A DNA stretch of 26,183 bases from positions 1 through 26,183 of the IMG/VR virus record IMGVR_UViG_3300008448_000542; one strand, 5' to 3'. A program made the position numbers and the translations under genes. Shown piece by piece: positions 2,390-24,191 of the stretch (position 1 is the first letter of the stretch; each line of letters opens with the position of its first letter). This DNA comes from a virus. The notes under the pieces are model-generated. The model did no database searches, was not told where the DNA came from, and worked only from the letters and a program-made list of their open reading frames with translations.

Positions 2390-4675
2390 ATGGCGCAAGG
2401 ACAAGATCGGATAGCAAGCAGTTTATTGGAACTGCAACCCACAGCTATTATAGAGCTTTTTTTACTCTATTTCAATACTGTTGACAATCCAAGCGCATTT
2501 ATTGCTTTTCATGGAGGTTCTGTTTATAATAAAGGTGTTGTATGGCAAGGTATTGAATACTTGCCAATTCCAGTAGAAACAGATGGATTCGAAGTCAATG
2601 CAAATGGTCAATTGGCGCGACCAAAAATGCGCATCTCTAATAAAGATTATTTCGCCACTGATCTATTGATTAATAACGATGACTTGCAATTTGCGAAAGT
2701 TGTTCGTAAAAGAACTTTTGTAAAACACTTAGACGATGTTAATTTCGATGGAGGAAATCCATGGGGACAGGCAGATGCATCAGCAGAGCTTTCTAATGAT
2801 GCTTTCGTTATAGGTCAAAAGACCGCAGAAAATAAAGTTTTTATTGAGCTGGAATTGACTTCGCCGTTGGATTTAGAAAACTTTGAAGTGAATAATCGTT
2901 TGATTATGTCTCGATATTGTTCGTGGCATTATCGCGGTAATGGTTGTAATTATAACGGAATACCAATTGCCACCGAAGAAGGCGAAAGCTTAATTGTGGG
3001 CAACCCTATTGATTGGTTTGCTAATCAAGCGCAAAAAAAATGGTCAGAACAGGGATCGTATACATCTGGCGAAGCGGCGTATATTGAAAATCAAAAAATT
3101 ACAATTGTCAATCCAAAAGATCCTCTGGAAATAGAGTTTGCCAAAATTTGGTATGTTTGCCAATCAGGTCATGCCAGCTCTCCCTCCACGATACCAGATA
3201 AAAATCCATCTCTTTGGAAACGAGATGGCTGCAATAAAAAACTAGACGGCTGCAAATTACGCTTCGGCAAAGGAGCTATTGAGTTCAACGCTGCGACTGA
3301 GCAAAGAACAGCTTATTTCGTTGATTTTACGCAGCGCACAGGAACTTTACGTTATAATAATATTGCGCCTAATGCCACAATATCTGGATCATCTTTTATA
3401 TCTGGATCGCCACCAACTAATTTAGTAAATTTAACTACAGGAACTGATAGCTCATGGACTGCATCTGGTAGTGCAAAAACAGGCGGCATGATTGGATTAG
3501 AGTGGTCGAGTGCAAAAAATATCAATCGTATTGATTTGTATGATAATCCATCAACACAGCTTCACTTTAACAACGCATATATTCGTTTATTTGATAGCTC
3601 TAATACTGTTGTCCGTAGTGGCGTATTGAGCATTCCAACTAATGGAACGCGAGCGACTACTGGCTTTGCCAATACTTCAGTCAAAAAAATCATTATTTCG
3701 GGCAGTGGTGTTACTACTGTGCCATCATTGAGTGAAGTGGCTGTTTTTGAGGCTAATCCGCCCAACTTGATTTACAATGATCAAGAATCTATCCCACTAC
3801 ACAGAAATGATTTTTTTCAAATTTCAACATGGGTGGGTTTAACTGGGCGAGATTTATACCCCAATGAACTATATTCAGTCTTTCACAATGTGAGCGGCGG
3901 ATGCCGTTATAGCGGTTTGAATTTGTATCTTTCTGGACAAAATCTTCTGCTAGACTTTGCGACTCGCACTACAGGCGCTACACCGCAGCAAATCAATAGA
4001 ACTTTAAGTATTCCATGGAAGAATGATGAATTGAGACCATTGCATCTGATTTGCTATGGTGGAAATGCGACTGGTTTAACTCCAACAGGCGTTACTTCTG
4101 GCTATATTGAATTGACTGATGGTGTATCAGAAACAGGTCGTTTTACTTTATCTGGATCGACGGGTGAATATTTTAGATTTAAAAACCCTAACTATCAAAG
4201 TGGTATTGTCGGCAATCAGTATCGTCTCAAATTTGGATTAAATGATTGGCAATTTCCAACAGGCGGTGAATTTGTTCCGAATCCTGTGGGCGCTTCTAAT
4301 CAAATTGTGAGTAATATGGAGCTTATAAGCCCAATTAAATTTGGTCCTACGGCATTTTGGACTGGTTCAAGTGGAATTAATGTAAGAATTGATGACCACA
4401 ATCAATCTATGTATAGAGACTACAGCGATTTTACAGGAAAACAAACCAATACAGAAGACTTGATAGGCTGGTGGGAAATGGAAATTAATGATTCGACCAC
4501 TGGTATTAGCGGCAGAAACAACGCTAGTAAAAAACTAATAGTATCTGGAGATAATCCATCAACATTGAATACCTATGACACTGCATCGGTATCTTTTACT
4601 CAGATAATTAACTCTCCAAAACAAAATATAGATCTACCATTTGGTGGATTTCCTGGAACTGAAAAATATGGTTAA
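2390..4675 (+). CDS. L: tail-tip protein L-like (Fe-S), with carbohydrate-binding-like extensions
   Basis: Residues 1-190 plus 276-300 match the lambda minor tail protein L pattern, including the four cysteines that in lambda hold an iron-sulphur cluster: C177 and C186 (YCSWHYRGNGC) and C281 and C288 (CNKKLDGC). The 9- and 7-residue spacings within each pair match my recollection of lambda. Between the pairs sits an insert of about 90 residues (about 190-278) with a CBM5/12-like W..G.Y..G-E-A..Y pattern ending YVCQSG...SLWKRDG. Residues 325-455 look like a discoidin/F5-8C beta-sandwich and 458-735 like a concanavalin-A-type domain. At 761 residues it is about three times the lambda protein. 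It should cap the tail tube at the tip, next to gpJ; the added modules may bind surface glycans. It is the first gene of the tail-tip operon. Confidence 0.85.
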   Translation: MAQGQDRIASSLLELQPTAIIELFLLYFNTVDNPSAFIAFHGGSVYNKGVVWQGIEYLPIPVETDGFEVNANGQLARPKMRISNKDYFATDLLINNDDLQFAKVVRKRTFVKHLDDVNFDGGNPWGQADASAELSNDAFVIGQKTAENKVFIELELTSPLDLENFEVNNRLIMSRYCSWHYRGNGCNYNGIPIATEEGESLIVGNPIDWFANQAQKKWSEQGSYTSGEAAYIENQKITIVNPKDPLEIEFAKIWYVCQSGHASSPSTIPDKNPSLWKRDGCNKKLDGCKLRFGKGAIEFNAATEQRTAYFVDFTQRTGTLRYNNIAPNATISGSSFISGSPPTNLVNLTTGTDSSWTASGSAKTGGMIGLEWSSAKNINRIDLYDNPSTQLHFNNAYIRLFDSSNTVVRSGVLSIPTNGTRATTGFANTSVKKIIISGSGVTTVPSLSEVAVFEANPPNLIYNDQESIPLHRNDFFQISTWVGLTGRDLYPNELYSVFHNVSGGCRYSGLNLYLSGQNLLLDFATRTTGATPQQINRTLSIPWKNDELRPLHLICYGGNATGLTPTGVTSGYIELTDGVSETGRFTLSGSTGEYFRFKNPNYQSGIVGNQYRLKFGLNDWQFPTGGEFVPNPVGASNQIVSNMELISPIKFGPTAFWTGSSGINVRIDDHNQSMYRDYSDFTGKQTNTEDLIGWWEMEINDSTTGISGRNNASKKLIVSGDNPSTLNTYDTASVSFTQIINSPKQNIDLPFGGFPGTEKYG

Positions 4676-5072
4676 AGAGATCAGAAATAAATCAATCGCC
4701 AAAATACGCGATTTTATAGTTAATGCTTGCAATGAACAAGTAGCTCAAGAAGTTTGTGGATTCATTGGTTGGGATCATGCGCAATATATCGCAACTATAG
4801 AAAAGAATGATGCCATAGATCCAAAAAACTTTTTTGCTATTAATCCTGCATCATATTTAATGTTCGCTGGAGACAACGATATGTTGGCTATTTTTCATAG
4901 TCATATTGCAGGAGATGAAATGCCCTCTGAGTTTGATATTAAAATGGCAGAGGCGTGTTGTGTTCCTTTTGTGATTTATTCCCTCAATACCAAAAAATTC
5001 CATATTTATGAACCTAGTGAATGCGAATTAGATGTAAAAGCATTTGCAAGGTTAAAGGAGGCTCTGAAATGA
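4668..5072 (+). CDS. K: tail assembly protein K-like, JAB/JAMM metallopeptidase
   Basis: A 134-residue JAB/MPN domain with a full zinc-peptidase signature: E28 (QEVCGFI), then H77-S-H79, seven residues, S87 and D90, an exact HxHx7SxxD motif. In lambda-type phages this protein acts in tail-tip assembly next to gpI and gpJ. Lambda-type K proteins normally carry a second, NlpC/P60 domain at the C-terminus; here it is absent. The ATG at 4668 is chosen because it overlaps the stop of the L-like gene as ATGGTTAA. A TTG nine codons upstream would also be in frame but lacks a ribosome site. The stop overlaps the gpI start as ATGA. Confidence 0.88.
   Translation: MVKEIRNKSIAKIRDFIVNACNEQVAQEVCGFIGWDHAQYIATIEKNDAIDPKNFFAINPASYLMFAGDNDMLAIFHSHIAGDEMPSEFDIKMAEACCVPFVIYSLNTKKFHIYEPSECELDVKAFARLKEALK
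5054..5061 (+). promoter_or_regulatory. strong Shine-Dalgarno for gpI-like gene
   Basis: AAAGGAGG lies 7 nt before the ATG at 5069 and inside the end of the K-like gene. It is the best Shine-Dalgarno in the window and fixes the gpI start at 5069 rather than the in-frame ATG at 5021. Confidence 0.8.
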
Positions 5073-5743
5073 TGAACGTAACACTACATGGAATATTAGC
5101 TAAAGAGTTTAAAAAAGCTTTTTGCTTGGAAATCAAACGCCCCAAAGAAGTGTTTGATGCTATTTCATGCTCTTATGGTAATTTTCGCAATAGAATTGTC
5201 GAATTAGCTCATCAAGGAATTCATTTCGTTTTACTTGTAGATGGGAAAAAAATCACAACAATGGAAGAGCTTTCTATTGCATCAGATAATCAACAGATTG
5301 ATATTGTTCCATTAGTATGTGGAGCGGGTAGAGCGGGAATGGCTATTGCAGTGATAGCTTTGGGCGTGTTGACTGCGGGAGCTGGATTTGCAATTGGCGC
5401 TGGTATGGGCGCAGCTTTTTTGGGAAGTTCAGCTGGATTGGTTGGTCAGAGTTTAGTCAGTATTGGTGTTGGCATCGCTATGATGGGTATTCAAATGGCA
5501 CTTGCTCCAAAACCAAAAATGGATAGACCATCTGCGGATGTTAATTCAGCAAAACAGTCTTTCTTGTTTTCTTCCAAAGCGAATACTGCGGAACAGGGCA
5601 TTCCAGTTCCTGTAGGTTATGGACGTTTACGAGTTGGTTCTGCTGTGATACAGTCAACAATTAAGTCTTATCCCCAAGCATTTGAAAAAGAAAATTCTTT
5701 ATTTGTGGATGGACAATCTCGTAATAATGATAGAAATTCGTAA
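5069..5743 (+). CDS. I: tail assembly protein I-like
   Basis: A 224-residue lambda gpI-like protein. The N-terminal ~80 residues look like a ubiquitin-type beta-grasp ending in IDIVPLV. A Gly/Ala-rich hydrophobic segment follows (about 84-146). The C-terminus has the family pattern NTAEQGIPVPVGYGRLRVGS (about 172-191). In lambda-type tails gpI works with gpK and gpJ during tip assembly and is thought not to remain in the mature virion. The start at 5069 is set by AAAGGAGG seven bases upstream and by the ATGA overlap with the K-like stop. Its TAA overlaps the ATG of the gpJ-like gene as TAATG. The L-K-I-J order is strong independent support. Confidence 0.85.
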   Translation: MMNVTLHGILAKEFKKAFCLEIKRPKEVFDAISCSYGNFRNRIVELAHQGIHFVLLVDGKKITTMEELSIASDNQQIDIVPLVCGAGRAGMAIAVIALGVLTAGAGFAIGAGMGAAFLGSSAGLVGQSLVSIGVGIAMMGIQMALAPKPKMDRPSADVNSAKQSFLFSSKANTAEQGIPVPVGYGRLRVGSAVIQSTIKSYPQAFEKENSLFVDGQSRNNDRNS

Positions 5744-11343: not shown

Positions 11344-11498
11344 TTACTTGTCATTGCTTCAAGTCCAGCCAAAAAATCAGCTTTAGCATTTTCGGGCAAT
11401 CGCGAGTAAAATTTCTTTGCTCGACGATATGCACGTTTTGCCATTGCATTTTCTGGTGGCAGTATTTTTCTCAGTTTTTTTGCTTTTTTATTATTCAT
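11340..11498 (-). CDS. small basic protein, 52 residues
   Basis: A short gene found by translating the minus strand by hand: ATG at 11498, TAA at 11340. The product starts MNNKKAKKLRKILPPENAMA and continues with KRAYRRAKKFYSRLPENAKA, so it is strongly basic and mostly helical. Two PEN boxes (PPENA and LPENA) flank the central KRAYRRAKKFY helix. Support: its ATG overlaps the stop of the upstream acetyltransferase as ATGA (11495-11498), and the frame is open exactly to the convergent tail gene. No family recognised; a nucleic-acid-binding role is possible from charge alone. Last gene of the minus-strand operon. Confidence 0.6.
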   Translation of the reverse strand: MNNKKAKKLRKILPPENAMAKRAYRRAKKFYSRLPENAKADFLAGLEAMTSN

Positions 11499-11950
11499 AG
11501 TTTGCTAATGTATGTTTCAATATCTTTAAGGAAGCCCATTTGTTTGTAGAATGATTTTACTTTTTGGTGAGAAGGGTTATTTACAGCGGTGGACATTGTG
11601 ATATATTTGCACCCCATTTGTCGCGCCGTATCAACTGCCGTCTTAAACAATTTGTAACCAGCTTTTGGATTTTTTGATAACCATAAAAATTCGTGAATCA
11701 TTTCTTCATTGAATTTCGGGCATCGCACTTTATTAAATGCGATCATGGCATCAAACTTTCCATCTTTCAAGTTACCCCATACCAAGAAATCCCAAGCCAA
11801 AATAGAAGGATGAGAGAAGTTAGCCTTGATAGTCTCTGGACTGTGAGATACCAAGGCATGACCTTCACCAGAATCATGTTGTTTAAAAAGCTCATACATA
11901 TCGTCAATGAGCTTTTCAAACTCTACAGGATTTGTAATCCGCTTAATCAT
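11495..11950 (-). CDS. GNAT-family N-acetyltransferase
   Basis: A 151-residue GNAT-type protein. The C-terminal half has the diagnostic arrangement: a helix with GYKLFKTAVDTARQMG (98-113), a strand YITMSTAV, then NNPSHQKVKSFYKQMGF (124-140) and the terminal strand ETYISKL. The acetyl-CoA pyrophosphate loop is degenerate (KNPKAGYK instead of the usual R/QxxGxG/A), as in several phage-encoded members. The substrate is unknown. It sits between the SSAP-like gene (8-nt overlap) and the 52-aa gene (ATGA overlap), so it is coupled to both. Small phage GNATs sometimes modify host proteins or DNA bases, but nothing here decides that. Confidence 0.75.
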   Translation of the reverse strand: MIKRITNPVEFEKLIDDMYELFKQHDSGEGHALVSHSPETIKANFSHPSILAWDFLVWGNLKDGKFDAMIAFNKVRCPKFNEEMIHEFLWLSKNPKAGYKLFKTAVDTARQMGCKYITMSTAVNNPSHQKVKSFYKQMGFLKDIETYISKL

Positions 11951-12722
11951 TGATTTTCTTAATCAGAACACGCGCAGTTTTTGCTGGAATGTCTGTAAAG
12001 CCACTCCAACTTTTGGCTTCTGCTAGAAGTTCAAGAGTCGTTGTGTCATTTGCTTCTGTCGCAGTTGTCCACATATTACGGAGATACGCTTTGAAGTCTT
12101 CAAACGAAAAGATTTTAAGCTTGTCGTTAACATTCTTTTCCAGTGCGCCTTGCGGCGTAATGGGGATAACGCTCGATTGAACAAGGTCGGAAATATCAAC
12201 CGCTTTATTTTTCGATTTGTCGATTTCATCTGCCCCGACAATGTAGATATTAAGGAAGTTGCGAACGCAGCGAACAAATGCACGATTACACGCAATAGTC
12301 TCTAGGAACTTCAAGCAGAAGTTATCTGTGTTAGCTTCTGTCGCATTGGCAACGTCTTCAAAGAGAACAGTTTCTCCTGATGTTTCATAGTTACCCATCC
12401 ACTCGATAGAACAGATTGCGGTAACGTAATTGAGGGATTGGTGATTGAGGGATTCATGCTTAATGTTGTAACGAACGCTTTTGAATCCTCGAAGGCGAGC
12501 CAATTCCTTAATGCCGCCAAGCATAATGAGTAGCTGTTTGTCATCAAGACCTTCAATAGATGTTGGAACTTGTTGTTTTCGAATCTCAAAGTAATCTTTA
12601 TTGGGGTAAAGAAACTGTGGATCAATCATGGCTCGCCAATCGACAAAGCCATCTTGAGTAAACTTGTATTCTTTTCCTTCGATGAGTCCATCGGAACCCC
12701 TTGTTATTTTATTTTGTGTCAT
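11943..12722 (-). CDS. possible Rad52/Sak-like single-strand annealing protein
   Basis: A 259-residue protein I cannot place with certainty. Residues 62-165 have the layout of Rad52-type annealing proteins: a helix ending KELARLRGF, beta strands (SVRYNIKHE, YVTAICSIEW, GETVLFEDVANA), then a helix with TIACNRAFVRCVRNFLNIY (142-160), comparable to the A-x-x-RA-x-R-x-x-x-x-x-G helix of Sak/Rad52/ERF families. The C-terminal ~85 residues are probably a separate, variable part. If correct, it would anneal ssDNA during phage recombination, which would fit with the putative ssDNA-binding protein at the head of the same operon. It overlaps the upstream GT gene by 14 nt. Fold inferred, not demonstrated. 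Confidence 0.4.
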   Translation of the reverse strand: MTQNKITRGSDGLIEGKEYKFTQDGFVDWRAMIDPQFLYPNKDYFEIRKQQVPTSIEGLDDKQLLIMLGGIKELARLRGFKSVRYNIKHESLNHQSLNYVTAICSIEWMGNYETSGETVLFEDVANATEANTDNFCLKFLETIACNRAFVRCVRNFLNIYIVGADEIDKSKNKAVDISDLVQSSVIPITPQGALEKNVNDKLKIFSFEDFKAYLRNMWTTATEANDTTTLELLAEAKSWSGFTDIPAKTARVLIKKIND

Positions 12723-13872
12723 AAATATATAAATGGTTTAATTCGCTAAGAAGCAACTCATTATCTTCTATGACGAGGTTCTTGTCAAGAATATTTTTAT
12801 CTTTTTTCCAGTGGTAAGTGCTGGGGTATTTTTTACCGCGAGATACGATAGTTTTTTGAGAGTGGAAAAATGACTTATTAAAAGTGATTTTTTTGTCATT
12901 TAAAATAGACTTATCGGCAGTAGCATAAAGTTGCACATTAAAATTAAAATACTTATTACGCACCGCTGGAAGAATAGCGGCATCTTTAACCAAAAGATTG
13001 ACACTAATCCCTAGACCACTGACATAATTAATGTAATCATCAGAAATGAGACTATCCTCGTTTACTAGGAAAGAAATATTCTTGAGCTTGCCGCGAACTT
13101 TCTGAACAAATTGATGTGGAATTATCTTCTCTGTGAAAAATGAAAACGATTGCAAATACTCGCACCAAGACTCTACATACGAGAACGAGTCGAGATAATC
13201 TAGTCTCATGAACCAATGCTTATCCAACATTCCTGGCATTTGCGCGAAAAAGTCTGGAACCAACTCAAAAACAGGATGATGATAGAAATCACCAATAAAA
13301 CGAGTCGTGAGCGGAATCGACTTTTCGGGCGTAAACTTTTTAATAATCGCATTTGCAATATCCTCTGGTAAAATTTTGTTGATTGAATCTTGTTGATCGA
13401 CAGCACTGAAGCATGGTTTAACTGACCAAGGTGCTTCAATATTTGTTTTATTTGAACTCCAATAACCATCTGAACAAGCGGCATAAGAATCGCCAAACAG
13501 AGTAACGATTGGAACGTCATTGGCACTGGCGAAATGCATCAGCGCATCATTGCTGCCAATATGAACAAGACTATTCTTGACGATGTATGCTTGTTTTTTG
13601 AAATCAAGATCAAAGATCAACTCATCAACCGATGTTAATTTAGGCGATTTCGAAGAACCAATTTGAATGATCTTGATCGACTGCTTGCTCAAAAATGAAC
13701 GCACAGCGTCAAAAACAATGTCAAAATACTTATACTGTTTTGATTGAGCTTGTGGCTCAACAGATACGGTAATATACTTCTCTGGAATTACTGGAAAGAA
13801 ATGTTCTGCCAGAATAGGTTTGCCAATTTTCACGCCAAGATTCTTGGCATATTCTTCTACTAGGTGACTCAT
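12709..13872 (-). CDS. GT9-like glycosyltransferase, C-terminal half, with extra unknown domain
   Basis: A 387-residue protein. Residues 33-180 match the nucleotide-sugar-binding half of GT9 (heptosyltransferase-type) enzymes: ITVSVEPQ, the KIIQIGSS strand, and VHIGSNDALMHFASANDVPIVTLFG (103-127), the most conserved GT9 stretch. The GT-B N-terminal Rossmann half is missing, and a fitting one lies at the end of the upstream protein. Residues 190-387 form an additional domain I do not recognise, rich in aromatics and lysine. The ATG at 13872 overlaps the upstream stop as ATGA, so the two proteins are probably made together and may form one enzyme. The sugar and acceptor are unknown; phage DNA, virion proteins or host surface glycans are possible. 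Confidence 0.65.
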   Translation of the reverse strand: MSHLVEEYAKNLGVKIGKPILAEHFFPVIPEKYITVSVEPQAQSKQYKYFDIVFDAVRSFLSKQSIKIIQIGSSKSPKLTSVDELIFDLDFKKQAYIVKNSLVHIGSNDALMHFASANDVPIVTLFGDSYAACSDGYWSSNKTNIEAPWSVKPCFSAVDQQDSINKILPEDIANAIIKKFTPEKSIPLTTRFIGDFYHHPVFELVPDFFAQMPGMLDKHWFMRLDYLDSFSYVESWCEYLQSFSFFTEKIIPHQFVQKVRGKLKNISFLVNEDSLISDDYINYVSGLGISVNLLVKDAAILPAVRNKYFNFNVQLYATADKSILNDKKITFNKSFFHSQKTIVSRGKKYPSTYHWKKDKNILDKNLVIEDNELLLSELNHLYIYDTK

Positions 13873-15764
13873 TGTAAATCGAATTGAATTTTGTCTTTGC
13901 CGTTATGGATATAGCAAATGTTCTTTTGAGTGGTTGTTGTTGGCATAAATGCTAAGTCGAAATAGCCTTTATGATTCCCAGCCCCCTCTAAAATAAATGA
14001 ATTCTCCAACATTTCAGAATATAAAATACATTTATGAATAAAAGGATTGTCTTCAATCAATGCAAAATATTCTTGCCGTGTCGCAAAGTAAATATTGTGC
14101 TGTGGGTATTGCTTGTGCAAATTTTCCATAAGACTATTCAAAAGAAGAACGTCTGATTCTGTGCCTTGAGCTAATACACAAATGCGTCTGCCTTCGTCGT
14201 CTTTATCCAGAACACTCTCAAATGCCAATGGTTTTTGTTGATGTTGAATACACACGTTGCGAAAATGATTGTACATTTGTTCGCGATTGATTTCTTGCTG
14301 TAGTTTATTTTTCCATATCTTGAACGAGGTATGATTTTCGTCAACCGATTCACCAAGCATTTCCTTGTGCAGAGAAATGATAAAGTCTTTTTCATCTGCT
14401 TCGAAATTAGGCTTATAGTCAGCATTAAAGCGAGAAGGTGGATTGTCGAAGTCGTAATCAACTTCTGGCATAGAGTCAATGAGAGACTCAAGCTCTTTGC
14501 CAATTGCTTCAATAGAGCAGTAGTCTACTACGAATTGACGAGCCTTAATTCCAATCGCTGCACGTTCAATCGAGGGCATATTATAAACAGCAAGTAACTG
14601 TTCGGCAATATGATCAGGATCAGTAGACGCTTTGATGAATTGAGTTCCAGGTTCTCTATACTCTGCCCAATTGAGTGGCAAACCACCGCTTTCTTCAGTG
14701 CAATACTCTTCGCCGCAAGAATAGTTTGTGACGAGCGTGATAAGCTCTGTGAGTTTAGCTTCTTGAATTGGAATCTCTTGACCACCGCTTGTGAATGGAT
14801 GACAATACACATCCATCAAGTTATAGATTTCGTTCAGTTGGGCTTCACTTACTCCATGATTAATGTTGGTTGTGCTTACTGTTTTCTTGCCGCCACATGC
14901 TGGGCAGTCGCGATCTTGTCCTACAAATGGAGCAATAAAATAGCTCTTGCATTGTTTGCAGAAATAGGTCGTGAGAACATCTTTGCTGTCGATGCCTTTT
15001 TCTTGCAGGAAAGTCGGAATGTCCCAACCCTCAGACCAGTGAGTGTGAAGCAGTAGTTTAGCGTGAGGAACTTGTTGTTTAAATTTTTTGAAACCATCCA
15101 ACAAATTAGGAACGCTTTTTCTAAGCTGATTTCTAAACACAAAGCCCACAATATATTCATTAGACAAATTAAACTTCTGACGCAATGCAGCTCGTCTATG
15201 ATCGTCCATTCTATAGAATTGATTTACGTCTAAGCTTCCCCTCAGAGTTTTAATATGATTATAACCCATTCTTTGAAACGCTTTCTCCGCGAAAGAAGAC
15301 CATACATAGTAGTGTTTGATTTTGGGCGCAGCATCTACAGCAGACTGTAGGATAGGCAAGCTATCAAGCGTAGTCCAAATCATCGAGTTCACTTTATTCC
15401 ACCATGGTTTTTCGTAAAACCCATCGAATGCCCAAATATCCTCAATGCCAATATAAACATCTGGTCGAACAGTATTGATAATATCGTCGATACCAAAAGC
15501 GCCATACGCTGCTTGACGTTGCTTGTGTTGGTCTTGATTGATTTCTGCCATTTTTTGGACATCTGGCAAAGAGCCATAAGTAGTCCATGGAGTGCTATCA
15601 GTTTCGGGGCAGCGCTTCATCAAGCCATTAGCAAGCTCAAAGATTTCATACTTTCCTGTATTAAACAGATAGCGCAGAATATTCTTTTTGTGCTTACCAA
15701 ATCCAGTAAAGGCTTTGCAGAAATTTGAATGAGCTAACACTCTTTTTTTTCTAGGAGAGTTCAT
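13869..15764 (-). CDS. GT4-like glycosyltransferase with zinc-ribbon insert and C-terminal half-GT9 domain
   Basis: A 631-residue protein in three parts. Residues 6-430 resemble a GT-B glycosyltransferase of the GT4 type, with IVGFVFRNQLRKSVPNLLDG (205-224), KLLLHTHW and a donor site SGGQEIPIQEAK (326-337). E335 fits the second Glu of the EX7E motif while the first is Gly327. A zinc ribbon C269-x2-C272 ... C287-x2-C290 interrupts the C-terminal lobe. Residues 435-515 are a helical linker. Residues 526-631 look like the N-terminal Rossmann half of a GT9 enzyme (RRICVLAQGTESDVLLLNSL, NIYFATR, NPFIHKCIL). The rest of GT9 is encoded by the next gene. The start is 5 nt after the upstream gene, without a clear RBS. 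Confidence 0.7.
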   Translation of the reverse strand: MNSPRKKRVLAHSNFCKAFTGFGKHKKNILRYLFNTGKYEIFELANGLMKRCPETDSTPWTTYGSLPDVQKMAEINQDQHKQRQAAYGAFGIDDIINTVRPDVYIGIEDIWAFDGFYEKPWWNKVNSMIWTTLDSLPILQSAVDAAPKIKHYYVWSSFAEKAFQRMGYNHIKTLRGSLDVNQFYRMDDHRRAALRQKFNLSNEYIVGFVFRNQLRKSVPNLLDGFKKFKQQVPHAKLLLHTHWSEGWDIPTFLQEKGIDSKDVLTTYFCKQCKSYFIAPFVGQDRDCPACGGKKTVSTTNINHGVSEAQLNEIYNLMDVYCHPFTSGGQEIPIQEAKLTELITLVTNYSCGEEYCTEESGGLPLNWAEYREPGTQFIKASTDPDHIAEQLLAVYNMPSIERAAIGIKARQFVVDYCSIEAIGKELESLIDSMPEVDYDFDNPPSRFNADYKPNFEADEKDFIISLHKEMLGESVDENHTSFKIWKNKLQQEINREQMYNHFRNVCIQHQQKPLAFESVLDKDDEGRRICVLAQGTESDVLLLNSLMENLHKQYPQHNIYFATRQEYFALIEDNPFIHKCILYSEMLENSFILEGAGNHKGYFDLAFMPTTTTQKNICYIHNGKDKIQFDLQ

Positions 15765-15769
15765 TTTAA

Positions 15770-16291
15770 TTATTGATCATCGGAGCGGTTTTGCATTTGA
15801 GCGTTTGAGCGAGCTTCGTAAAGTTTGTGCAAAATCATTTTGCAAAACTCACGAATAGCATAAGCCTCACCAGGCTCGATACCAATACCAAATTTCAAAG
15901 CTGAATTTTTAGTGATGGAAAATGAAAAAGCTTTTGTACCATCATTTTTCTGATAAGGTTTAAAAGAGATGGTTGTCTTATTTGTTTCGTGGGTATGAAA
16001 TGCTTTGTATTCAGCATAGTTTTCAATGGCGTTGATAATGCCGCCAACCTCAAATTCATTTAGTTTAATGACTACTGTTTTTTCGGGGTTTTTTGCATTC
16101 TCAGCAAACGAGCCGTTTTTGGTTTTTTCATCCCACGAATGCTGCATAATAGCGTTGACATAGAGACATGGATCTTTGAATTTGCCAGTAGTGCCAAGAC
16201 GGAAAGCGAATGCGCATCCGCTCGATTTTGAATTGGGTTTATAGAGTTGAATCATACCTGATTTTAAATAGTGCGTAAAAATTTTCCACAT
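15770..16291 (-). CDS. putative PC4/Whirly-like ssDNA-binding protein
   Basis: A protein of 173 residues, or 161 if it starts at Met13 (16255). The body MIQLYKPNSKSSG... QHSWDEKTKNGSFAENAKNP ... KTVVIKLNEFEVGGIINAIE ... TTISFKPY ... FGIGIEPGEAYAIREF recalls phage proteins I associate with PC4/Whirly-type single-stranded DNA binding; strand-rich halves and a C-terminal helix fit that fold. The C-terminus is polar and Q/N/D-rich. Met13 may be the true start because the recalled family begins at MI-x-LYKPN, but neither start has a good ribosome site, so the longer form is given. It heads the six-gene minus-strand operon and is divergent from the gene at 16309, with only 17 bp between. Function inferred. 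Confidence 0.5.
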   Translation of the reverse strand: MWKIFTHYLKSGMIQLYKPNSKSSGCAFAFRLGTTGKFKDPCLYVNAIMQHSWDEKTKNGSFAENAKNPEKTVVIKLNEFEVGGIINAIENYAEYKAFHTHETNKTTISFKPYQKNDGTKAFSFSITKNSALKFGIGIEPGEAYAIREFCKMILHKLYEARSNAQMQNRSDDQ

Positions 16292-23027: not shown

Positions 23028-24191
23028 TTATTGTTCTGAATTGCCAATTAGTGGCTCCATAATATCTCTAATCAAGAAAGTATTGTATTGACTGAGGCTT
23101 GGTATCATTGCCAACGCCTCTTCATTACGTAAAAATACGCTTACCATTTGCAATATCTTTGCTGGGCGCGAACTCTCATATAGATATACTTCGCATAAGT
23201 AATTGAAAATCGTCTCATAAACAAACAGTCGAAGCATTAAATTGGAACAAGAGTTATACTCTTCGATAAACTGCTGCTCATTAAAGTCGGGGAAGAGAGA
23301 TTTATAGTCCATAGCAAATTGCCTTTGATATTCCAAAGGAATTCCCATGTTGATAAAAAGATTGCACAAATCAAACAACTGATTGCCCATGTAACCATGT
23401 TGCAGGTGTTGGAATTTAAATAGATTATTTTTGATTAAAATGTTATCTGGAATAAGCTTTCCGTGGCAAAAGTCAGAAGTCTTACAGAAACTTTGCCGCG
23501 AAAGATATTCAACTTCATTCTTGAGAGTTTTGAGAATCGACCGCAGATTGTCAATGTTGGTGTGATCAGCGATAGCAGCAAGAGAATGTTCTGGTAATTG
23601 CTCTATATCATAACGAGCGAATACATCATTGAGATAATGGGAAAATGTTCTATCTACTTTTACGCCGCGCAGTTTATCAAAAGTATACAGAAATGAATCG
23701 TTATGTTCAAAGATGGACGAAAGACCAAATTCAGCAACAGTATCAGCAGATTCAAAAGATGTTACGATATATTGCACAGATTCTCCATACTTTGTTTTGC
23801 CGTGCTTATAAGCAACAGGAGAAAATGGTGCGAGTTGTTTTAGGATATTATATTCATGCGCAAAAAAAGATCCATCACCATCAAATGAATACTTAAAATA
23901 ACGAGCTTGTCCTTCAATTACCGCTTTGAAGCAGTCGAAATCCATTTGGGAATCCAAAAATTTAACATTTTCAGCAGATGAGAAACCAATCTTTTTTAAG
24001 ATATTTTGCGCCAAAAGTTCATTCTCCGTATCTGTTTGATTCAAAGAAAATAAATATGGTCTATTAGTGTTAGTGATAGATTGCACGTTGTATTGTAACG
24101 AAAAAACCCAGTCTTTCGACTGGGTTTTAGGTTTTTTATGTTCGACCAACTTATGCAGCGTACGCTCTGCTATTAGTAAAGACGAGGTCAA
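23028..24191 (-). CDS. APH/choline-kinase-fold protein, probable pseudokinase
   Basis: A 387-residue protein with the aminoglycoside-phosphotransferase fold. The N-lobe shows a likely ATP-binding lysine K100 (RYFKYS) and helix Glu E113 (FFAHEYNILKQL). The C-lobe has the catalytic-loop block FCHGKLIPDNILI (241-253) and GNQLFDLCNLF (269-279). Active enzymes read HGDxxxxN and then a metal-binding Asp in the I-D-W position; here they are K245 and H262. N250 and the FDL motif are kept. Loss of both Asp residues suggests no kinase activity, or an altered reaction. The first ~30 codons overlap an intrinsic terminator (24103-24128), so the true start may be later; GTG at codon 36 (24086) is one option. 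It abuts the convergent gene at 23027. Confidence 0.7.
   Translation of the reverse strand: MTSSLLIAERTLHKLVEHKKPKTQSKDWVFSLQYNVQSITNTNRPYLFSLNQTDTENELLAQNILKKIGFSSAENVKFLDSQMDFDCFKAVIEGQARYFKYSFDGDGSFFAHEYNILKQLAPFSPVAYKHGKTKYGESVQYIVTSFESADTVAEFGLSSIFEHNDSFLYTFDKLRGVKVDRTFSHYLNDVFARYDIEQLPEHSLAAIADHTNIDNLRSILKTLKNEVEYLSRQSFCKTSDFCHGKLIPDNILIKNNLFKFQHLQHGYMGNQLFDLCNLFINMGIPLEYQRQFAMDYKSLFPDFNEQQFIEEYNSCSNLMLRLFVYETIFNYLCEVYLYESSRPAKILQMVSVFLRNEEALAMIPSLSQYNTFLIRDIMEPLIGNSEQ
24101..24128 (-). terminator. intrinsic terminator, GAAA tetraloop
   Basis: On the minus strand an 11-bp perfect stem (AAAACCCAGTC paired with GACTGGGTTTT) encloses a GAAA tetraloop and is followed by six T. It lies 23 bases past the stop of the small gene at 24151. 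It could also act on the other strand through a TTTT run. It overlaps the annotated 5' end of the kinase-like gene, which argues that that gene starts later or has its own promoter downstream. Confidence 0.85.

What the first reader, a model, noticed from the sequence alone, without database searches (positions are those of the whole stretch)
13800..14290. A GT9 glycosyltransferase fold split across an ATGA junction between two genes
The C-terminal ~105 residues of the 631-aa protein look like the N-terminal Rossmann half of a GT9 enzyme, and the first ~180 residues of the next protein look like the C-terminal half. The break lies near the interdomain linker. The two frames overlap by ATGA, so the subunits would be made together and may reassemble. 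The first half is fused to a complete-looking GT4-type transferase, giving a possible two-enzyme assembly. Alternatives are a single-base sequencing error or a programmed frameshift, because the two frames are offset by one base here.
Basis: partly seen in the sequence, partly recalled or inferred. Interest (0 to 1): 0.72.

Follow-up and report, generated by a model that had tools for sequence, protein, structure and literature searches.

The report
Phage sugar-transferase split across two proteins
Many uncultivated water-dwelling phages make one of their sugar-attaching enzymes (GT9 type) as two separate proteins encoded by two neighbouring, mostly overlapping genes, with the first half welded to a second, complete sugar-attaching enzyme; the split is old and conserved, not a sequencing error.

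Summary
Confirmed. Gene A (15764-13869, minus, 631 aa) is a full GT4 transferase (res. 5-436, Z 30.9 to BshA) followed by a ~105-aa N-lobe of a GT9 enzyme. Gene B (13872-12709, minus, 387 aa) starts with the GT9 C-lobe and ends in an unassigned ~190-aa domain. The genes overlap by ATGA (13872-13869). The tail matches positions 1-53 of NCBI's heptosyltransferase III model; B matches C-terminal parts of GT9 models. A relative's tail plus B, folded as one chain, gives a GT-B model (pTM 0.86) that matches whole GT9 structures at Z 20-23 (next unrelated folds 12.6). Among 402 loci, 398 hold both genes (164 non-redundant); none is fused, the break is always at the same place, and B lies in all three frames relative to A. 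In 20 of the 164 a third gene separates the halves. That rules out a sequencing error or frameshift. The tail is under strong purifying selection (dN/dS 0.03-0.04); the WaaC D13 equivalent (A D538) is kept in 108 of 109. So the GT9 active site is most likely built across two chains. Physical assembly, donor, acceptor and purpose are not shown. It is a new variant of the split GT-B theme known from Alg13/Alg14.

The parts
13869..15764 (-). Gene A, 631 aa: GT4 glycosyltransferase fused to a GT9 N-lobe
   Evidence: family of more than 500 viral loci
14457..15752 (-). GT4 domain (A residues 5-436), with an invariant Cys4 zinc-ribbon-like insert at residues 269-290
   Evidence: VIA-align Z 30.9 over 355 residues to BshA 3mbo; Pfam Glycos_transf_1 2.9e-5; C269/C272/C287/C290 in 109 of 109
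13872..14222 (-). GT9 N-lobe (A residues 515-631, core 527-606) with D538, equivalent to the WaaC catalytic base D13
   Evidence: NCBIfam heptosyltransferase models from position 1; 3tov residues 8-64 (weak); D538 in 108 of 109; structure
13869..13872 (-). ATGA overlap: stop of A and start of B
   Evidence: no Shine-Dalgarno motif upstream
12709..13872 (-). Gene B, 387 aa: GT9 C-lobe plus an extra C-terminal domain
13318..13872 (-). GT9 C-lobe (B residues 1-185): H3-Y8 linker helix, K45 (WaaC K192 position), N108 (WaaC D261 position; D in 97 of 108 relatives)
   Evidence: Pfam GT9; 1psw residues 241-338, E 1.2e-4
12712..13317 (-). Extra C-terminal alpha/beta domain of B (residues 186-387), fold not assigned
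   Evidence: predicted well-ordered alpha/beta in relative L139; dN/dS 0.07-0.10
15770..16291 (-). Conserved upstream operon neighbour, 173 aa, function unknown
   Evidence: in 103 of 108 loci directly upstream, median overlap 1 base; very weak Whirly-like match
11943..12722 (-). Conserved downstream operon neighbour, 259 aa, function unknown
   Evidence: in 99 of 108 loci, median overlap 14 bases
11495..11950 (-). GNAT-like acetyltransferase at the end of the same gene run
   Evidence: Pfam Acetyltransf_1 E 0.0025; in 52 of 108 loci

Best explanation
A and B together form a two-enzyme assembly. A contributes a complete retaining-type GT4 glycosyltransferase plus the N-lobe (acceptor side, catalytic base D538) of an inverting GT9-type enzyme. 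B contributes the GT9 C-lobe (nucleotide-sugar side) and an extra domain. The two chains associate across the GT-B cleft, as Alg13 and Alg14 do, so that the GT9 active site exists only when both are made. Overlapping genes without Shine-Dalgarno sites give coupled translation and roughly equal amounts. The likely role is two consecutive sugar additions to one glycan, most probably a host-surface polysaccharide or LPS, or a virion protein. Shown: the lobes, the conserved split, co-occurrence, selection, and one-chain structural compatibility. Inferred: physical assembly, activity, order of reactions and target.
For: Sequence: the tail matches heptosyltransferase models from position 1 and B matches their C-terminal half; 1psw, 3tov, Pfam GT9. 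Structure: the joined chain of L139 has pTM 0.86 and matches GT9 enzymes end to end (3tov Z 22.7, 1psw 21.7, WaaC 21.4, TibC 20.2; next non-GT9 GT-B fold 12.6). GT4 domain Z 30.9. Conservation: 398 of 402 fetched loci have both genes (the other four: the window's own fragment, two cut contigs, and L104 with a short GT4-only ORF), 164 non-redundant, 0 fused; dN/dS of the tail 0.03-0.04 and of the C-lobe 0.034 in the one pair where dS was measurable; D538 in 108 of 109 and K/R45 in 92 of 108. D13, K192 and D261 are the key heptosyltransferase residues, and the donor binds the C-domain and the acceptor the N-domain (PMC5713226). Precedent for split GT-B: Alg13/Alg14 and EpsE/EpsF (PMC4973528).
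Against: No complex was predicted or measured. The joined model used a relative's pair read through its stop, and joining forces proximity. The window's own B has N108 where most relatives and the heptosyltransferases have D. The Pfam GT9 score of the window's B is just under its cut-off. The tail's single-sequence matches are weak (E 0.003). In 20 lineages a third gene lies between the halves, so strict ATGA coupling is not universal.
Confidence: 0.8

Rival explanations
1. The A tail and B are degenerate, non-catalytic GT9 remnants that serve only as a docking or regulatory module for the GT4 enzyme.
For: The window's B has N in place of the WaaC D261 aspartate and some relatives lack the motif histidine. 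B evolves faster than A (identity to the window 27-63% for B against 54-83% for A in the same 49 relatives). No enzyme of this kind has been assayed.
Against: D538 is kept in 108 of 109, K/R45 in 92 of 108 and D in 97 of 108 at B position 108; dN/dS of the C-lobe is 0.034 where measurable. The catalytic positions are on both chains and are kept on both.
Confidence: 0.15
2. Sequencing or assembly error: one indel breaks a single GT4-GT9 protein.
For: The two frames overlap by only four bases in the window.
Against: The same break occurs in 164 non-redundant relatives from independent assemblies, with stop-to-start offsets from -14 to +400, and with another gene between the halves in 20 (DUF6165-like or cupin in those inspected).
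Confidence: 0.005
3. Programmed frameshift or readthrough makes some fused GT4-GT9 protein in addition to A.
For: The frames overlap in the window and in many relatives.
Against: The relative frame of B is not conserved (117 in one, 43 in another, 4 in frame), an intervening gene occurs in 20 lineages, and the junction sequences listed share no obvious slippery motif.
Confidence: 0.01
4. The halves do not pair with each other: the A tail binds another partner and B pairs with another N-lobe protein (for example a host GT9).
For: No interaction data. A few records hold a further GT9-like match elsewhere (G006, G015).
Against: A and B are always close neighbours in the same order, and each lacks exactly the lobe that the other has.
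Confidence: 0.04

Closest known systems
GT9 heptosyltransferases (WaaC, WaaF, RfaQ; 2gt1, 1psw, 3tov)
   Same: Both lobes by sequence profile and fold; catalytic-base aspartate and lysine positions kept (PMC5713226)
   Different: Known GT9 enzymes are one chain; here two chains, the N-lobe fused to a GT4 and the C-lobe carrying an extra domain; donor unknown
Alg13/Alg14 and EpsE/EpsF (split MurG-like GT-B enzymes, GT28)
   Same: A GT-B enzyme divided between its two lobes into two proteins (PMC4973528)
   Different: Different family, in phages, and here the N-lobe is fused to another complete glycosyltransferase instead of a membrane anchor
TibC/Aah autotransporter heptosyltransferases (4rap, 4rb4)
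   Same: GT9-like catalytic lobes, Z about 20 to the joined model
   Different: Single chain with N-terminal beta-barrel and iron finger, dodecameric, protein acceptor (PMC4358343)
GT4 enzymes BshA / PimB' / HepE
   Same: Fold of A residues 5-436 (Z 29-31)
   Different: A has a Cys4 insert and the fused GT9 lobe; sequence identity about 15%
phrog_2170 phage glycosyltransferases
   Same: A matches at E 1e-17 over its GT4 part
   Different: The family profile (374 positions) ends with the GT4 domain; no GT9 lobe

Membership tests
GT9 glycosyltransferase | N-lobe with the GT9 start motif and catalytic-base Asp | tested here: met
   TIGR02201 positions 1-53 matched by the A tail; D538 in 108 of 109; on a separate chain from the C-lobe
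GT9 glycosyltransferase | C-lobe recognised by Pfam PF01075 | tested here: inconclusive
   Window B 20.2 bits against cut-off 22; 46 of 50 relatives match and 9 of 16 large records pass the cut-off
GT9 glycosyltransferase | Lysine (WaaC K192) and aspartate (WaaC D261) of the donor site | tested here: inconclusive
   K45 present; window has N108 at the D261 position, D in 97 of 108 relatives
GT9 glycosyltransferase | Whole GT9 fold (both lobes in GT-B arrangement) | tested here: met
   Joined tail+B of relative L139: Z 22.7 to 3tov over 281 residues, model 8-301 against chain 2-345
GT9 glycosyltransferase | Both lobes on one polypeptide | tested here: not met
   0 fused among 398 loci with both genes; hence called a split variant of GT9, not a standard member
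GT9 glycosyltransferase | Transfer from ADP-heptose or a related donor | not testable with these tools
   Needs an assay
Split GT-B enzymes (Alg13/Alg14 type) | Two genes, one per Rossmann lobe | tested here: met
Split GT-B enzymes (Alg13/Alg14 type) | GT28/MurG family membership | tested here: inconclusive
   Best structural and sequence matches are all GT9; MurG/Alg13 not among the rows shown
Split GT-B enzymes (Alg13/Alg14 type) | Physical heterodimer | not testable with these tools
   Complex prediction not available; one-chain model only
GT4 glycosyltransferase (A residues 5-436) | GT4 fold and Glycos_transf_1 signature | tested here: met
   Z 30.9 to BshA; Pfam 2.9e-5, 24.1 bits against cut-off 26.4; SGGQEIPIQEA motif conserved

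The most novel reading that the evidence does not exclude
An obligate two-chain GT9 enzyme, apparently the first split GT9 (none was found in the papers searched), with its acceptor lobe built into a GT4 enzyme, so that two successive glycosylations are channelled within one assembly whose donor-binding subunit is a separate, faster-evolving and possibly exchangeable protein across a large uncultivated phage group.
Probability: 0.55. Interest if true: 0.72.

Novelty: new variant of a known kind. Interest (0 to 1): 0.6.

Why it matters
Splitting a GT-B enzyme at its cleft is known mainly from the MurG-like family. A second, independent, ancient case in GT9 gives a natural test of how a two-lobe active site can be divided between proteins, and of why (control of stoichiometry, exchange of donor-binding subunits, coupling to a second transferase). 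The pair is present in more than 500 environmental viral loci but was found in none of the 50,697 GenBank phage records searched, so it also marks a sugar chemistry of uncultivated phages that, as far as I could find, nobody has assayed.

Tried and rejected
Sequencing error and frameshift: rejected by 164 non-redundant relatives in all frames, with inserted genes. DNA-base glycosylation as the purpose: no thymidylate synthase/dCMP hydroxymethylase (PF00303) in 16 large viral records, so no support, although those records may be incomplete. Phage-made donor: nucleotidyltransferase family PF01467 in only 5 of 19 records, so the donor probably comes from the host. Pfam scan of the tails found no GT9, as expected if the Pfam model starts after this segment; the NCBIfam full-length models did. 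A first mixed alignment put B onto the tail columns and was replaced by A9. Profile scans with the tail or B alignments alone failed for lack of conserved stretches. Literature searches for a split GT9 found none. A long BFVD protein (A0A7S9XE01, Virus NIOZ-UU157, 985 aa) resembles both models and might be a multi-GT chain; its sequence could not be read here.

Full report
WHAT IS THERE. The window is a 26-kb fragment of an uncultivated tailed phage (lambda-J-like tail protein and minor tail proteins). On the minus strand, gene A (15764-13869) encodes 631 aa and gene B (13872-12709) 387 aa, overlapping by ATGA. Reading the other frames through the junction shows B in the -1 frame of A with no long open extension.

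GENE A. A structure prediction from 50 homologues (mean pLDDT 85.6) places a complete GT4 glycosyltransferase at residues 5-436 (Z 30.9 over 355 residues to BshA 3mbo). A helical linker (about 458-518) and a small alpha/beta lobe (strand 527-531, helices 536-552, strand 557-562, strand 578-581) follow. The last 22 residues have low confidence when A is folded alone. The lobe's profile matches GT9: NCBIfam heptosyltransferase III, positions 1-53 of 344, from the window's own tail (E 0.003), and heptosyltransferase I, II and III from position 1 in relatives (E down to 1.5e-4). The aligned aspartate D538 falls on the WaaC catalytic base D13 position and is present in 108 of 109 non-redundant members. 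That D13 is the proposed base, that K192 and D261 are important, and that the donor binds the C-terminal and the acceptor the N-terminal domain is from PMC5713226; the mapping of D538 onto D13 follows from the ungapped model alignment and the known WaaC sequence.

GENE B. Residues 1-185 match the GT9 C-lobe: Pfam Glyco_transf_9 172-243 (E 4e-4), 1psw residues 241-338 (profile E 1.2e-4), and C-terminal parts of the heptosyltransferase models in relatives. 46 of 50 homologues match Pfam GT9, best 3.8e-12; in 16 large viral records the match exceeds Pfam's cut-off in 9. K45 sits at the WaaC K192 position (K or R in 92 of 108). The WaaC D261 position is N108 in the window but D in 97 of 108. Residues 186-387 form a further alpha/beta domain that could not be assigned.

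DO THE HALVES FIT? Tail plus B (493 aa; alignment A9 of 2 joined, 10 tail and 28 B rows) gave mean pLDDT 88.1 and pTM 0.86. The stretch around the natural break (residues 97-105 and 111-118) holds the only segments under pLDDT 50. VIA-align gives GT9 structures at the top and well separated: 3tov 22.7, 1psw 21.7, WaaC 21.4, TibC 20.2, and plant NDH-PSI subunits of the same fold 17.8-19.3, against 12.6 for the next GT-B fold. The alignments run through the junction from the first to the last residues of the GT9 chain (Foldseek agrees). This shows compatibility of the two halves with one GT9 enzyme; joining the chains does force proximity, so it is not proof of a complex.

IS THE SPLIT REAL AND OLD? 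Scans of IMG/VR and of one genome per species report more than 500 viral relatives of A, plus contigs in metagenome-assembled cellular bins (12 loci). Of 402 loci in hand, 398 hold both genes. Of the other four, L001 is the window's own fragment, L012 and L096 are cut by contig ends, and L104 has a short GT4-only ORF near a contig end. Many loci are repeat fetches of one contig or near-identical; after removing these 164 remain. None is fused. The break is always after the same conserved 'HN(G)' region and before 'M(S)H' (alignments). Stop-to-start offsets range from -14 to +32, and from +350 to +400 in 20 lineages with room for a whole gene in between. In the seven such loci inspected the insert was DUF6165-like in six (two checked by Pfam) and a cupin in one. 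Relative frames are mixed (117, 43 and 4). These facts exclude a sequencing error and make a programmed frameshift untenable. Selection is strong on both halves: dN/dS 0.03-0.04 for the tail, and 0.034 for B's C-lobe in the one pair where dS is measurable.

CONTEXT. A-B sits in a tight gene run conserved across loci: a ~165-aa protein (103 of 108; median overlap with A 1 base), A, B, a ~260-aa protein (99 of 108; median overlap with B 14 bases), often a GNAT-like protein. The ~165-aa family has only a very weak resemblance to Whirly single-strand DNA-binding proteins (E 0.13), the ~260-aa family no meaningful match. Other glycan genes occur nearby in some relatives: a second GT4, WavE-like, DUF6165. 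One of 15 inspected window genes and none of 72 B starts has a Shine-Dalgarno motif (background 8.6%). From general knowledge this fits Bacteroidota hosts, as do several of the bins, but bin labels are unreliable for phage contigs. No thymidylate synthase/dCMP hydroxymethylase was found in 16 large records, so DNA glycosylation is not supported. No GenBank phage was found to carry the pair; only distant GT4 matches appear.

MECHANISM. Most likely A and B assemble so that D538 of A faces the nucleotide-sugar site of B, giving a GT9 activity that needs both chains, while A's GT4 acts on the same glycan before or after it. Overlapping genes without ribosome-binding motifs fit coupled translation. 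Shown: lobes, conservation of the split, co-occurrence, selection, one-chain compatibility. Inferred: complex, activity, donor, acceptor, purpose.

RELATION TO KNOWN SYSTEMS. GT-B enzymes split into two proteins are known in the MurG-like family (Alg13/Alg14; EpsE/EpsF; PMC4973528). Searches of the paper library found no split GT9, which is weak evidence of novelty since subscription papers are missing. The present pair is therefore a new variant: another family, in phages, with one half fused to a second enzyme.

Noticed in passing
window 14895-14960 (A residues 269-290): Invariant Cys4 zinc-ribbon-like insert inside the GT4 domain (C269, C272, C287, C290 in 109 of 109 members).
   Followed up: partly
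L160:5673-6077, L099:6902-7309, L046:6862-7254: A DUF6165-like or cupin gene sits exactly between the two GT9 halves in the loci inspected; 20 of 164 lineages have a gap of this size.
   Followed up: partly
window 15770-16291: Highly conserved ~165-aa neighbour of A; profile faintly resembles Whirly single-strand DNA-binding proteins (E 0.13).
   Followed up: partly
window 11943-12722: Highly conserved ~260-aa neighbour of B without any convincing family match.
   Followed up: partly
window 12712-13317 (B residues 186-387): Extra alpha/beta domain after the GT9 C-lobe, unassigned.
   Followed up: no
whole window: Almost no Shine-Dalgarno motifs before genes (1 of 15), hinting at a Bacteroidota host.
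   Followed up: partly
window 4641-5743: ORFs 4641-5072 and 5021-5743 overlap by about 50 bases in the listing, so the true start of the second (tail region) is uncertain.
   Followed up: no
window 23028-24191: 387-aa protein without family match in Pfam or PHROGs; a similar-looking ~356-aa protein lies near A in 45 of 108 relatives.
   Followed up: no
L104:4762-6079: A GT4-only version without the GT9 tail, near a contig end in a bin labelled Bacteroidetes.
   Followed up: no
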